Part shown: piece after piece, positions 141 through 19,957 of the stretch
How the letters are laid out: every line of letters begins with the position of its first letter
Numbering within the stretch: the stretch's first letter is position 1
Source: a virus
IMG/VR virus record: IMGVR_UViG_3300001533_002178
Coordinates: 1 to 20,023 of that record
Strand: one strand, 5' to 3'
DNA length: 20,023 bases
The notes under the pieces: model-generated
Told to the model about the DNA's origin: nothing
Databases searched by the model: none
What the model saw: only the letters and a program-made list of their open reading frames with translations
Translations under genes and position numbers: made by a program

Positions 141-596
141 ATGCAGGCACTTTGCCGGTGCATGGGGGGGAGATATATATACAATACCATAGTTTTTAAC
201 ACCGGTGGTCCCCCCACCCCCTCCGCCTATACACACATAACGCGCAGGGGCCCCCGACGATCCGATCGCCCGTCGACACACGCACACGCACAGCCACACG
301 CACAGGCAGCGCACAGGCAGCGCACACGGCAGCGCAGCGAGTCGACGGCACGGCATGGCATAGCGCACAGCAACGACACGCATCGCACACGGCATCGCAC
401 ACGACATCGCACTCGGCATCGCACTCGGCATCGCACACGAGCGAGTCCGAGTCCGATCGATAGGGCCTCACGTCGTGCAGGCTACGCGCGCGCGGACGGC
501 ATTGCTGCGTGCGGTGTGGCCCTCCGATCGATCCAGTCAATCCAATCGCTCCAATCCCTCCCATCGCCAGTCAAGCCGGCGCACGTCCCACGTTAA
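141..596 (+). CDS. Doubtful small ORF with strong ribosome binding site
   Basis: A near-perfect Shine-Dalgarno sequence (AAGGAGG at 130-136) sits just before this ATG, which is the only reason to list it. The 151-residue product is low complexity: a His/Arg/Thr-repeat middle is produced by the tandem 12-bp DNA repeats, and a Ser/Gln/Ile repeat is produced by the 9-bp repeats. No domain is recognised, and composition does not resemble the neighbouring genes. It may be a short genuine gene start whose downstream part has been replaced by expanding simple repeats, or pure chance. The N-terminal 20 or so residues before the repeats are the only part that could be ordinary protein. Confidence 0.2.
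   Translation: MQALCRCMGGRYIYNTIVFNTGGPPTPSAYTHITRRGPRRSDRPSTHAHAQPHAQAAHRQRTRQRSESTARHGIAHSNDTHRTRHRTRHRTRHRTRHRTRASPSPIDRASRRAGYARADGIAACGVALRSIQSIQSLQSLPSPVKPAHVPR
381..440. repeat. Five tandem 12-bp repeats
   Basis: Units begin at 381, 393, 405, 417 and 429. Each reads CATCGCAC followed by A or T, then CG and G or A. There are no spacers, so this is not a CRISPR array. The array could be an iteron-like protein binding site or an unstable minisatellite; the sequence alone does not say which. Confidence 0.8.
531..566. repeat. Four degenerate tandem 9-bp repeats
   Basis: Units ATCCAGTCA, ATCCAATCG, CTCCAATCC and CTCCCATCG follow each other without gaps. They are imperfect but share the core TCC followed by A or C and then A or G. 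Confidence 0.5.
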
Positions 597-660
597 GCCA
601 CTGCCTGCATGCCCATCCGGCTCTGACGCACAGGCCTCCCCGACAATGCATGCCTAAACA

Positions 661-9619: not shown

Positions 9620-10681
9620 ATGCCAGTAAAATATGTGAATCACAATCAGCTTCAGCGCTCTATGCTGCTGTGCTACAACGCCAAGGTTCCCGTCTGCATC
9701 ATCGGGGGCGTAGGCTGCGGTAAAACAACCGCCGTTCGCGACTTCGTTGCAAATATTAACCAAAAAGTCGGCTTCGACTTCCATCTCTGGACGGTCTTCC
9801 TTGGCCTCGTGGACTCAACCGACATCGGCGGGGTTCCTGTTCGTACGGACAATAATGAGATCATTTATGCGCCTCCAAAATGCCTTCCGTTTAACACGGA
9901 TAAAGCGGGTGTTATTTTGGGAGACGAGTACGATCGATCTGACCCGGAGGTACAGAACGCCTTCAATCAAATTCTGCTGGGCGGAGAAATCCATGGAAAC
10001 AAAATCTCAGAAGAGGCGTTCGTTATCTTAACGATGAACGGCGATTCTGACCGCTACACCACGCAGCTGTCCGAGGCGGCGCGCAACCGTGTTTGCACGC
10101 TCTTCCTGAGTTCCAAGGCTACGTCAACGCTGTCTCAGTGGGATGAATGGGCAGCCAAGCAGGGAATCAACGAAACGATCCGCGCCTTTGCTCACTTCCG
10201 TCCGGATTTGATCAAAACGCATGAGAACTTCGAGGAGATGGCTATCATTACTCCGCGTTCGCGGGATATGGCCGGTCGCATTCTGGATGCTGCTGAAGCT
10301 GCCCAGGGCGTATTCAAAACGGACGATATTCTGCTTCCGATTCTTGCCGGAATCATCGGTCACGGACCGGCAACAGAGTTGATTAGCTTTGAGCGCATGC
10401 GTCATGAACTGCCGGATTTGACCAAAATGCTGAAAAATCCAAACAAGTATGAGACGGATGAGTGCTGGACAAAGAGCTCTCTGTGTTACGCAATCGGCAT
10501 CGGCATTGGCGGCTTAATCGAGGGTAACATTGACCTTGCGGAAAATGCCATAACGCTCGTTCGGTTTATGCCGGATGAAATCGCTGCCTGGGCTATTCGT
10601 CATGTTACGAACGCCTGCCCGGAAGTCTCTACAACCGATGCATACCGTGAGTTTTTCGATGAAATGAAAGACCTGCTGTAA
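9620..10681 (+). CDS. MoxR/CobS-like AAA+ ATPase
   Basis: The product is 353 residues; ACCAACCAGGAGAACAAA precedes the start. The Walker A motif GGVGCGKTT is at 29-37. A 'STDIGGVP' segment at 66-73 is typical of MoxR-type AAA proteins. Walker B is VILGDEYD at 98-105, followed by a 'QN.fnqiLl.G' segment and the sensor-1-like ILTMNGD. The likely arginine finger lies in SEAARNRV. These features place it in the MoxR/CobS clade, whose members form hexameric rings and usually work with a VWA-domain partner. Such a partner is encoded at 11842. The ATPase probably remodels or loads metal into an unknown target protein; the phage target cannot be inferred from sequence. Confidence 0.9.
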   Translation: MPVKYVNHNQLQRSMLLCYNAKVPVCIIGGVGCGKTTAVRDFVANINQKVGFDFHLWTVFLGLVDSTDIGGVPVRTDNNEIIYAPPKCLPFNTDKAGVILGDEYDRSDPEVQNAFNQILLGGEIHGNKISEEAFVILTMNGDSDRYTTQLSEAARNRVCTLFLSSKATSTLSQWDEWAAKQGINETIRAFAHFRPDLIKTHENFEEMAIITPRSRDMAGRILDAAEAAQGVFKTDDILLPILAGIIGHGPATELISFERMRHELPDLTKMLKNPNKYETDECWTKSSLCYAIGIGIGGLIEGNIDLAENAITLVRFMPDEIAAWAIRHVTNACPEVSTTDAYREFFDEMKDLL

Positions 10682-11674: not shown

Positions 11675-11702
11675 GCGGGGAGAAAGCCCCCGCCCAATTT
11701 TC
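11675..11702 (+). terminator. Weak terminator-like hairpin before the tRNA-like gene
   Basis: Stem GCGGGG/CCCCGC (11675-11680 with 11688-11693) is followed by CCAATTTT. The T-run is short, so partial termination or an RNA-processing role is equally possible. Confidence 0.4.
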
Positions 11703-11815
11703 GAGAGTGTAGCTCAGTGGCAGAGCATCAGGAGACCTCATGGCTAGAACATGGGGATACGCAAAAGCGTAATTGGCTTGAAGGTCGTCGGTTCAAATCC
11801 CTCCACTCTCCACCA
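11703..11815 (+). tRNA. tRNA-like gene with an expanded anticodon arm
   Basis: The ends and elbow are tRNA-like. The acceptor arm is GAGAGTG (11703-11709) with CACTCTC (11804-11810), followed by CACCA. T8-A9 and a D arm GCTC/GAGC with an AGTGGCA loop follow. The variable segment AGGTC precedes GGTTCAAATCC of the T arm. The anticodon stem can form TCAGG/CTTGA (one G-T pair), but 44 bases lie between its halves instead of 7. They fold into CCTCATG/CATGGGG with a 7-base loop GCTAGAA, and TACGC/GCGTA with an AAAA loop. No position gives a normal U33 plus anticodon after removing a 37-base insert. The T stem has two mismatches, and an extra A precedes CCA. It could be an intron-bearing tRNA, a chimeric decayed tRNA or a tRNA mimic; amino-acid identity is unassigned. 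Confidence 0.55.
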
Positions 11816-11841: not shown

Positions 11842-13260
11842 ATGAGCAATATCAAGGCAAGAAAGCATCTAAGCAGAGGCATGATGCGCGTTATGCGCAC
11901 GAGTCCGTTCTACACAACTATTTTGCTAAAACATCAAATGGTCGAAGATCCGAACGTGAACGGAATGGTCATCAATGGCGAGTCCATTCGTTATCATCCC
12001 GACGCAATCATGACGCAAACGCCGGAAGAGCTGGGCGAGTACCTCAAAAGCATGGCCATGCATATCGCGTTCAAGCATCACGTTCGCGCCGCAGAGATGA
12101 GGCCGCGTGCGGAGCGCCTCCTGAAAGAGAGCGGGCTTAGGTTTGAGCAGGTTTTTAATCAGGCTGCCGATCTCAGCATTCACTCGTTGCTGTACAACGA
12201 AAACTGGAAAATTTGGCAGTCCGACGCGTTCAAAGACGCGCCTATGCCGGGCAGAGGAAAGTTCGAAGAGTTCGAGAGCGGAGAATCAACAGAAAGCTAT
12301 TTTCCAAAAGTGCTCAAAGTCATGGAGGAAGAGGCACAGGAACAGCAAAACCAATCGGGTGCAAACCCGCCGCCATGCAATGGCGGGCAAGGCGGAGCCG
12401 GAGAGGGCGATAGCAGCGACGATGAGCAGGAGCAAAACGACGAAAGCGATCAGCAAGACGACTCCAACAATCAAAGCTCTCAAAGCGAAAAGCAGGAAGA
12501 AGAAAAGCCGCAGCCGATGGACTTCGGTCAAGTCGAACAGGCACCAAAGGGAGCGCCGCAGCAAGCCGAAGACAAGGCTGATGAAATGATTGCGCAAGCA
12601 ATCATGGCAGCTAAGGAAGCTGGCGAAAAAGCGGGGTCTGTGCAGTCGATTATCGCCGAAAACGAAAAGCCCGTAAAGGTTGACTGGCGCTCAGAGGTGT
12701 CACAGTTCTTCACGCGCAACTGCCGTGGCAAAAAGAACTATCGGCACCTGAATCGTCGCCGTTGGGGCACAAAAATTGTGTTTCCTACGAACAAAGACAA
12801 ATCACCAAAGCGCATGCTTCTCTTGGTTGACGTCTCCGGTAGTATGTCGGACGAATGCGTTGGTGCGGTTTACAACCACATCGAGGCAATCATTCAGGCA
12901 AAGCCGCGTCTCGTAGTCGAACTTGTACCGTTTGATGATGGCGTATTCGAGGATTCGAAAGTCGAGTTTACACCCGAAAACATTCCGATCAAGGTCGAAA
13001 AGAGAAGTCGAATCGGATATGGCGGAACCCGCTTTATGCCAACCGCCGAGTACGCCGAAAAGCGCACAAAGGAAGATGACATATCGGGCGTGGTCATGCT
13101 GACCGACAGGCTGCCGTGTGATAAACATCAGTTCGACGAGTATCGCGGCGCTACCGTGCCCTGGCTCATCTTGTCTGTGCTTGAGCATCAGTTCGGCAAA
13201 TCGTCTGAGAGCCATGCATCAACGCCCAGATGGGCAAAAATACTGGAGATTGAACCGTAA
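11842..13260 (+). CDS. VWA-domain protein with DUF2201-like N-terminus (CobT-like)
   Basis: The product is 472 residues; ACCAACAGGAGAAAAAC precedes the ATG. Residues about 1-160 resemble the DUF2201 metallopeptidase-like domain (HIAFKHHVRA at 74-83; NQAADLSIHSLL at 106-117). However, the family's HExxH position reads S-M-A-M-H (70-74), so the catalytic His and Glu appear lost. A Gln/Glu/Asp/Ser-rich disordered linker spans about 163-228. The C-terminal VWA domain keeps its metal site: DVSGS (330-334), the Thr of GGTRF (396) and Asp422 in LTDR. Paired with the MoxR-type ATPase at 9620, this recalls CobS/CobT cobaltochelatase-like and RavA/ViaA-like chaperone pairs. The target is unknown. The gene follows the tRNA-like element by 26 bases. 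Confidence 0.85.
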   Translation: MSNIKARKHLSRGMMRVMRTSPFYTTILLKHQMVEDPNVNGMVINGESIRYHPDAIMTQTPEELGEYLKSMAMHIAFKHHVRAAEMRPRAERLLKESGLRFEQVFNQAADLSIHSLLYNENWKIWQSDAFKDAPMPGRGKFEEFESGESTESYFPKVLKVMEEEAQEQQNQSGANPPPCNGGQGGAGEGDSSDDEQEQNDESDQQDDSNNQSSQSEKQEEEKPQPMDFGQVEQAPKGAPQQAEDKADEMIAQAIMAAKEAGEKAGSVQSIIAENEKPVKVDWRSEVSQFFTRNCRGKKNYRHLNRRRWGTKIVFPTNKDKSPKRMLLLVDVSGSMSDECVGAVYNHIEAIIQAKPRLVVELVPFDDGVFEDSKVEFTPENIPIKVEKRSRIGYGGTRFMPTAEYAEKRTKEDDISGVVMLTDRLPCDKHQFDEYRGATVPWLILSVLEHQFGKSSESHASTPRWAKILEIEP

Positions 13261-13292: not shown

Positions 13293-13295
13293 GAA

Positions 13296-13325
13296 CCCCG
13301 CCTCCGGAACTTGCCGGAGGCGGGG
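13296..13325 (+). terminator. Strong 12-bp hairpin without a T-run
   Basis: CCCCGCCTCCGG pairs perfectly with CCGGAGGCGGGG around the loop AACTTG. No T-run follows, so classical intrinsic termination is doubtful. It may stabilise the 3' end of the VWA mRNA or mark the 5' end of the next transcript. Confidence 0.4.
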
Positions 13326-13365
13326 CGGGTGCTACAAACCAACCAGGAAGAAAGGTTTATAATCT

Positions 13366-19318: not shown

Positions 19319-19957
19319 ATGAACATAACGAACGAATGGCTACAGAAAAACAGAGCGTGTAAGGAGGGAGCTGTTTGGTTCAACGCTCAAGCTGAAATAG
19401 ATGCAAAAACGGTCTTGATGTCGCTTCTTGAACAAGACCATTTCGATTGGGCGAACTGGGCTGTTGTCCGGTTGATGGCACGGAAACAGAGAGTTAAGTA
19501 CGCCATCTATGCGGCTAAAAAAGCGCTTAAAATCTACGAGAGCACGTGTCCAAAAAACAAAGCCCCCCGGGAGGCTATTAAAGCGGCGAAGGCATGTTTT
19601 AAAAATCCGTCAGAGAAAAATAAGACCACCGCCTATGACGCCGCTTATGCCGCCTATGCCGCCGCCTATACTGCTGATACCACCTGTGCCGCCTGTGCCA
19701 CACATGCCGCCGCCTACGCCACCTATACCGCCGCCTATGCTGCTGATACCACCTGCCTGATTACACCTCCCGTTTGCGATGAGGTTGACAATATCCCGCT
19801 GCATGAAGTTGATTCAATTGTCGGCTTTGCGGGCTACACGTTCAGACTGTCAGACGGCACGGAAACAGAGTGGCTTGAGGACTGCCCGTGTCTGATCGAA
19901 GACAAACCTGCCGAGCTGGTTAAGGCGCGGTTTTATGTGGGAGGTGTAGTAGAATGA
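19319..19957 (+). CDS. Ala/Tyr-repeat phage protein
   Basis: The product is 212 residues; AAAGGAGAAAC precedes the ATG. The N-terminal 100 residues are helical, with DWANWAVVRLM, YAIYAAKKALKIYE and PREAIKAAK. This order I know from phage proteins of unknown function related to putative immunity-like repeats. Residues about 105-146 are low-complexity Ala/Tyr/Thr (AAYAAYAAAY type) made by GCCGCCTAT-like DNA repeats and may vary in length between strains. The C-terminal 60 residues form a separate, strand-rich acidic domain (GYTFRLSDGTETEWLED). The repeats produce long false frames on both strands. The stop overlaps the next start. Confidence 0.75.
   Translation: MNITNEWLQKNRACKEGAVWFNAQAEIDAKTVLMSLLEQDHFDWANWAVVRLMARKQRVKYAIYAAKKALKIYESTCPKNKAPREAIKAAKACFKNPSEKNKTTAYDAAYAAYAAAYTADTTCAACATHAAAYATYTAAYAADTTCLITPPVCDEVDNIPLHEVDSIVGFAGYTFRLSDGTETEWLEDCPCLIEDKPAELVKARFYVGGVVE
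19630..19750. repeat. GCC/TAT-rich imperfect trinucleotide/nonanucleotide repeat
   Basis: Imperfect copies of GCCGCCTAT and GCTGATACCACC run through the Ala/Tyr-rich part of the gene at 19319. Repeated blocks such as GCTGATACCACCTG (about 19673 and 19741) suggest internal duplication, so slippage could change the coding length. Confidence 0.75.

What the first reader, a model, noticed from the sequence alone, without database searches (positions are those of the whole stretch)
11703..11815. tRNA-like gene whose anticodon loop is replaced by two hairpins
Acceptor, D arm, variable loop, T loop and encoded CACCA look like a real tRNA. The anticodon stem halves TCAGG and CTTGA are separated by 44 bases that form a 7-bp hairpin with a 7-base loop and a 5-bp AAAA hairpin. 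No clean removal of 37 bases restores U33 and an anticodon, and two T-stem pairs are broken. It could be a tRNA mimic, an anticodon-less decoy (for example against anticodon nucleases), a new small intron, or a decayed chimera. Its place inside the ATPase/VWA cassette adds interest.
Basis: partly seen in the sequence, partly recalled or inferred. Interest (0 to 1): 0.72.

Follow-up and report, generated by a model that had tools for sequence, protein, structure and literature searches.

The report
Phage tRNA-shaped RNA without an anticodon
A small phage carries one gene for an RNA that has the outer shape of a transfer RNA, but two small hairpins sit where the codon-reading loop should be, so it probably does something other than translate and may be a rare example of a phage using the tRNA shape as a scaffold, although a dead tRNA gene is not ruled out.

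Summary
At 11703-11815 there is a tRNA frame (Rfam tRNA 41.6 bits, E 6e-6). Its acceptor, D arm and T loop are intact. A 44-nt block replaces the anticodon loop and folds into a 7-bp/7-nt and a 5-bp/AAAA hairpin, far more stably than shuffled sequence (0 of 2000). Two T-stem pairs are broken. A detail missed: the encoded CCA is one base out of register (C73-ACCA).

No single deletion restores a decoding arm; ARAGORN's intron mode gives a loop with A33. This matters because many jumbo-phage tRNAs carry 40-60-nt inserts, and in 35 of 68 one deletion does restore a canonical arm (at most 13 of 68 after shuffling). The window element lacks their features.

The same broken T stem (GTCGG/CCCTC) is rare and linked to missing anticodons: 6 of 13 complete frames, against 1 of 92 with a paired stem. 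One such element (L169/L176) is a conserved, covarying, anticodon-less tRNA-like RNA.

Best reading: an anticodon-less tRNA-shaped RNA, excised by tRNA-processing enzymes from an early operon and not used for decoding. A decayed tRNA is the main rival. No close relative of the window element was found, so function is inferred.

The parts
11703..11709 (+). acceptor stem, 5' strand GAGAGTG
   Evidence: sequence; Rfam tRNA alignment
11712..11726 (+). D arm GCTC-AGTGGCA-GAGC
11728..11732 (+). anticodon-stem 5' strand TCAGG
11733..11776 (+). 44-nt block in place of the 7-nt anticodon loop
   Evidence: 44-nt insert; fold -15.3 against -6.2 for shuffles
11736..11756 (+). hairpin 1: CCTCATG-GCTAGAA-CATGGGG, 7 bp, 7-nt loop
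   Evidence: pair probability about 0.94; unique in the window
11758..11771 (+). hairpin 2: TACGC-AAAA-GCGTA, 5 bp
   Evidence: pair probability 0.84-1.0
11777..11781 (+). anticodon-stem 3' strand CTTGA
11787..11803 (+). T arm GTCGG-TTCAAAT-CCCTC with mismatches T50.T64 and C51.C63
11804..11815 (+). acceptor 3' strand CACTCTC, then C-ACCA (CCA one base out of register)
11675..11693 (+). hairpin GCGGGG...CCCCGC between the upstream stop codon and the tRNA-like RNA
   Evidence: direct reading; not called as a terminator by the scan
9620..10681 (+). MoxR-like AAA ATPase gene, same strand
   Evidence: phrog_1297 E 5e-49; PF07728
10774..11664 (+). DUF3150 gene, ends 38 bases before the element
   Evidence: PF11348 E 6e-5, below Pfam cut-off
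11842..13260 (+). DUF2201/VWA gene, starts 26 bases after the element
   Evidence: PF13203 E 5e-22, VWA domains; phrog_1314

Best explanation
The element is a tRNA gene that has become, or is kept as, an anticodon-less tRNA-shaped RNA. It is transcribed with the ATPase-DUF3150-VWA operon (inferred from same-strand, closely spaced genes). RNase P and the host 3' tRNA maturation enzymes, which read the acceptor/T domain, would cut it out (inferred). The product is a compact RNA of about 110 nt that shows two hairpins where the anticodon loop should be. It cannot decode, because it has no U33-anticodon-R37 loop (shown). Its two T-stem mismatches lie in pairs known to set EF-Tu affinity, and its CCA is out of register, so it is probably kept out of translation (inferred). 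Its role would then be as a scaffolded small RNA or decoy, or as a cutting signal that separates the DUF3150 and VWA messages. The evidence does not choose between these.
For: All tertiary-core tRNA positions are kept (T8, A14, G15-C48, G18G19, T54T55C56R57A58; sequence), while only the decoding part is replaced. The inserted hairpins are far more stable than chance. It is the only tRNA-like gene in the window. Other small phages have the same plan as a single tRNA-like gene: the only tRNA-model hit in the records of L067, L129, L164 and L171 lacks a normal anticodon loop. The same broken T-stem block goes with a missing anticodon in 6 of 13 complete frames, against 1 of 92 when the stem pairs (Fisher p 7e-6; p 1e-4 counting families once). 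One such element, L169/L176, is a 206-nt island, 77.7% identical, between loci that otherwise do not align; four helix pairs of its extra hairpins change on both sides.
Against: No relative of the window element itself was found, so conservation of its hairpins is untested. The lone-strand fold does not favour the anticodon stem or T stem. The comparison families differ in the sequence and place of their extra hairpins, so they are analogues, not shown homologues. There is no expression evidence.
Confidence: 0.45

Rival explanations
1. A dead tRNA gene: a foreign 37-44-nt piece entered the anticodon loop and the T arm was swapped with that of another tRNA gene. Nothing selects for it now.
For: Three independent faults in one gene: no anticodon, two T-stem mismatches, CCA out of register. 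GTCGG and CCCTC each look like half of a normal T stem, as a single exchange within GGTTCAAATCC would give. No relative keeps it.
Against: Acceptor, D stem, tertiary contacts and both inserted hairpins are intact, and an inserted random piece would not be expected to fold this well (0 of 2000 shuffles). Comparable anticodon-less elements are conserved with covariation.
Confidence: 0.33
2. A tRNA (ARAGORN: Asn AUU) with a small, removable intron, of the kind carried by many jumbo-phage tRNAs; splicing would give a 76-nt tRNA.
For: Phage tRNAs with 40-60-nt inserts in the anticodon arm are common, and in 35 of 68 a single deletion restores a canonical arm, against means of 0.8-6.6 and at most 13 for shuffled inserts. 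In KVP40/D479 the rejoined stem and the insert hairpin both change compensatorily. ARAGORN intron mode returns a 37-nt intron here.
Against: The rejoined loop TAATTGG has A33 and G38. No position of the cut gives U33 with five pairs. The hairpin-CNGC core is absent. The T stem stays broken after removal.
Confidence: 0.14
3. A decoy for an anticodon-loop nuclease or a similar tRNA-targeting host defence: hairpin 1 (7-nt loop GCUAGAA) imitates an anticodon arm, such as that of tRNA-Leu(UAG), whose loop shares UAGAA.
For: The loop has 7 nt and ends UAGAA, and the tRNA body is kept. Phage tRNAs are known to counter retron-Eco7 and PrrC (PMC11555353).
Against: In that study the effect came from intact tRNAs and was lost when the anticodon or stem-loops were changed. 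Hairpin 1 has C33 and a 7-bp stem. No link to a defence system was seen. The likeness to tRNA-Leu(UAG) is from memory, not tested.
Confidence: 0.06

Closest known systems
KVP40 'tRNA-Pseudo-3/4/5' and similar insert-bearing tRNAs of jumbo phages
   Same: Phage tRNA frame with perfect acceptor, D and T arms and an extra 40-60 nt in the anticodon arm
   Different: There one deletion often restores a decoding arm and the insert often has a hairpin-CNGC core; neither is true here. They sit in large tRNA arrays; this one is alone.
Phage T4 RNA C and RNA D (species 1 and 2 stable RNAs)
   Same: Small stable phage RNAs of unknown function; RNA C ends in a TTCGAAT T arm
   Different: RNA C lacks a recognisable D arm and matches no tRNA model; no sequence similarity was shown
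L169/L176 tRNA-like RNA
   Same: No anticodon, two extra hairpins, same GTCGG/CCCTC T stem, small phage genomes
   Different: The extra hairpins are in the D loop and the anticodon arm is a 4-bp tetraloop; not found by the tRNA model
Engineered tRNA scaffold for recombinant RNA (PMC3753655)
   Same: Foreign RNA put in place of the anticodon loop of a tRNA body, which carries it stably in E. coli
   Different: Man-made, with an intact T stem; cited for how the natural element may work, not as kin
Bacterial Y RNA YrlA (Rfam RF02553)
   Same: Non-decoding RNA that imitates tRNA
   Different: No YrlA match in the window and no Ro60/TROVE domain in the neighbouring VWA protein

Membership tests
functional canonical tRNA | acceptor, D and T arms with conserved tertiary-core bases | tested here: met
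   Rfam RF00005 41.6 bits; core bases present by reading, apart from the T-stem pairs
functional canonical tRNA | 7-nt anticodon loop with U33 and purine 37, directly or after one deletion | tested here: not met
   44-nt loop; best rejoined loop TAATTGG has A33
functional canonical tRNA | paired T stem | tested here: not met
   3 of 5 pairs
functional canonical tRNA | CCA at 74-76 if encoded | tested here: not met
   tail is C73-A-C-C-A, one base out of register
small-insert tRNAs of jumbo phages (KVP40 type) | removal of one block restores a canonical arm | tested here: not met
small-insert tRNAs of jumbo phages (KVP40 type) | insert hairpin followed 1-5 nt later by CNGC (22 of 68; 5% of shuffles) | tested here: not met
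   the window has ATACGCAA, lacking the N
tmRNA | tRNA-like ends plus tag reading frame; ARAGORN tmRNA model | tested here: not met
   no tmRNA at lowered threshold; no RF00023 match; pair 3-70 is G-C by reading
group I intron in a tRNA | match to a group I intron model | tested here: not met
   no such match in the window; insert far too short
bacterial Y RNA (YrlA) | RF02553 match and nearby Ro60 (TROVE+VWA) | tested here: not met
   the VWA protein is DUF2201, not TROVE
T4 RNA C/D | sequence or structure homology | tested here: inconclusive
   T4 RNA C has the T arm but not the D arm; no model exists
archaeal bulge-helix-bulge tRNA intron | BHB motif at splice sites and a splicing endonuclease | not tested
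   host unknown

The most novel reading that the evidence does not exclude
Small phages carry a class of single-copy, anticodon-less tRNA-shaped RNAs: natural tRNA scaffolds, barred from translation by loss of the anticodon and by the broken EF-Tu-binding part of the T stem, that display structured inserts (in the anticodon or D loop) to a host target. The window element would be the two-hairpin, anticodon-loop form.
Probability: 0.22. Interest if true: 0.8.

Novelty: new variant of a known kind. Interest (0 to 1): 0.5.

Why it matters
If it is real and expressed, it adds a phage RNA that uses the tRNA fold for something other than decoding. Phage tRNAs are usually explained by codon usage or by replacing cleaved host tRNAs, and neither applies to an RNA without an anticodon. 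The comparison also gives a test for separating spliceable tRNAs from tRNA mimics among the entries that annotators call pseudo-tRNAs, such as those of KVP40.

Tried and rejected
Close relatives of the VWA and DnaB proteins in IMG/VR: none. DNA relatives of the cassette or element among phages and plasmids: none beyond short tRNA matches. tmRNA, YrlA, group I intron: no match. Mate of the tRNA-like gene in cognate ATPase/VWA cassettes of Vibrio SBP1 and Thermus phiFa: none annotated; in Vibrio pVa5 the annotated tRNA-TERM next to the ATPase is a 2.6-kb joined prediction on the other strand. Hairpins 1 and 2 as repeats elsewhere in the window: none. A covariance model of the jumbo-phage inserts failed to find base pairs because the hairpins misalign; replaced by a direct motif test. 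An amber-suppressor reading (CUA in the loops of window, L067 and L164): dropped, since U33 is present only in L067 and the window's genes read normally under code 11.

Full report
What is there. The window is a 20,023-bp virus record. Between a DUF3150 gene and a DUF2201/VWA gene, downstream of a MoxR-like ATPase gene on the same strand, lies a 113-base tRNA frame. Rfam's tRNA model matches it at 41.6 bits, well over the curated cut-off, with 44 bases where the anticodon loop should be. The acceptor (7/7) and D stem (4/4) are intact. By reading, the tertiary-core bases of tRNA are present: T8, A14, G15 with C48, G18 G19, T54 T55 C56 A57 A58. The anticodon stem TCAGG/CTTGA can pair. The T stem GTCGG/CCCTC has two mismatches, T50.T64 and C51.C63. 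The 3' tail is C-ACCA, so the encoded CCA is one base out of register.

Is the insert structured? Yes. It folds into hairpin 1 (11736-11756, 7 bp, loop GCTAGAA) and hairpin 2 (11758-11771, 5 bp, loop AAAA) at -15.3 kcal/mol. Dinucleotide shuffles average -6.2 +/- 2.1, and none of 2000 is as stable. The complete molecule is not unusually stable (z -0.96). In the lone-strand ensemble the inserted hairpins dominate, while the anticodon and T stems are weak.

Can it be a tRNA with an intron? Default ARAGORN finds nothing. In intron mode it proposes tRNA-Asn(att) with a 37-nt intron, loop TAATTGG, which has A33 instead of the invariant U33. To calibrate this I collected tRNA frames with inserts from viral contigs. 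Many are jumbo-phage tRNAs. Of 68 frames, 35 regain a 5-bp stem with T33 and a purine at 37 when one block is deleted. Shuffled inserts give means of 0.8 to 6.6 depending on how many stem bases are held fixed, and never more than 13. A hairpin followed by CNGC occurs in 22 of 68, against 5% of shuffles. These look like real small introns. The window element fails both tests.

Is it a mimic or a corpse? The broken T-stem block GTCGG-TTCRAAT-CCCTC is rare: 17 stretches in 2.9 million viral contigs. With the GGTC of the variable loop in front, it occurs 7 times in viruses and in 2 of 84,980 bacterial and archaeal genomes. Among complete tRNA frames with the broken block (window excluded), 6 of 13 have no normal anticodon arm: L067, L162 (a whole tRNA nested in another), L164 and L171, L169 and L176. 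In the records of L067, L129, L163, L164 and L171 the tRNA-like gene is the only tRNA-model hit. The pair L169/L176 is the strongest comparison: a 206-base island, 77.7% identical, between otherwise non-alignable loci, with an identical anticodon-less arm, the same broken T stem, and D-loop hairpins in which four pairs change on both sides. So phages do keep anticodon-less tRNA-shaped RNAs. This supports, but does not prove, the same for the window. The linkage alone also fits decay, since both faults are tolerated once a tRNA is out of use.

Mechanism (inferred). RNase P and 3' tRNA maturation recognise the acceptor/T domain and do not need the anticodon, so the RNA would be cut out of the operon transcript. 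That EF-Tu affinity is set largely by T-stem pairs 49-65, 50-64 and 51-63 is recalled from the literature, not tested here; two of these are the mismatched pairs. Engineered tRNA scaffolds show that a tRNA body carries inserted RNA in place of the anticodon loop in E. coli (PMC3753655). What the hairpins bind is unknown. Phage tRNAs are known to counter tRNA-cutting defences, but in the cited case intact anticodons were needed (PMC11555353).

Place in the cassette. Two other phages with the related ATPase/VWA genes have no annotated tRNA gene between them, so the position is probably incidental or serves message cutting in this phage only.

Limits. The calibration set was gathered with exact patterns and is biased towards well-kept D and T arms. 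Counts of families are small.

Noticed in passing
L133/L180 (KVP40), L183 (Vibrio phage D479), L115, L141, L146, L055, L040, L004, L125, L157 and others: Jumbo-phage tRNAs with 40-60-nt inserts, often inside the 5' strand of the anticodon stem (e.g. CG|insert|TGC CTGTTAA GCACG, tRNA-Asn GUU); KVP40's are annotated tRNA-Pseudo. Deleting the insert restores canonical arms in 35 of 68. KVP40 versus D479 shows compensatory change in the rejoined stem (T-A to A-T) and in the insert hairpin; the KVP40 element is 100% and 97% identical in two phages whose surroundings are 88% identical. Looks like an undescribed class of small introns.
   Followed up: partly
L169:162-260 (-), L176:5790-5900 (-): Conserved anticodon-less tRNA-like RNA with two covarying extra hairpins in the D loop and a broken T stem.
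   Followed up: partly
L162:7335-7490, L165; also L030:448-568 and L127: A whole tRNA-Ile nested in the anticodon loop of another tRNA (L162/L165), and acceptor/T-arm-like minihelices inside the anticodon arm of others; tRNA-end enzymes might excise them.
   Followed up: no
L187:595-844 (phage N4, EF056009.1, about 32451-32700): Three ARAGORN tRNAs (Asn GTT, Ser TGA, Thr TGT) with no annotation in this N4 record.
   Followed up: no
L161:1409-1547 (-), T4 rnaC: T4 stable RNA C ends in a canonical T arm (CCGGG-TTCGAAT-CCCGG) and imperfect acceptor; it may be a relic or relative of tRNA-like RNAs.
   Followed up: no
window 141-600: GC-rich start of the contig (60% GC) with degenerate 12- and 24-base tandem repeats, unlike the rest; possible assembly chimera.
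   Followed up: no
window 13294-13330: Strong GC-rich hairpin just after the VWA gene, perhaps the end of the ATPase-VWA transcript (seen in the chance Rfam alignment).
   Followed up: no
window 19319-19957: ORF with 21-base tandem repeats coding for runs of AAYA-like residues.
   Followed up: no
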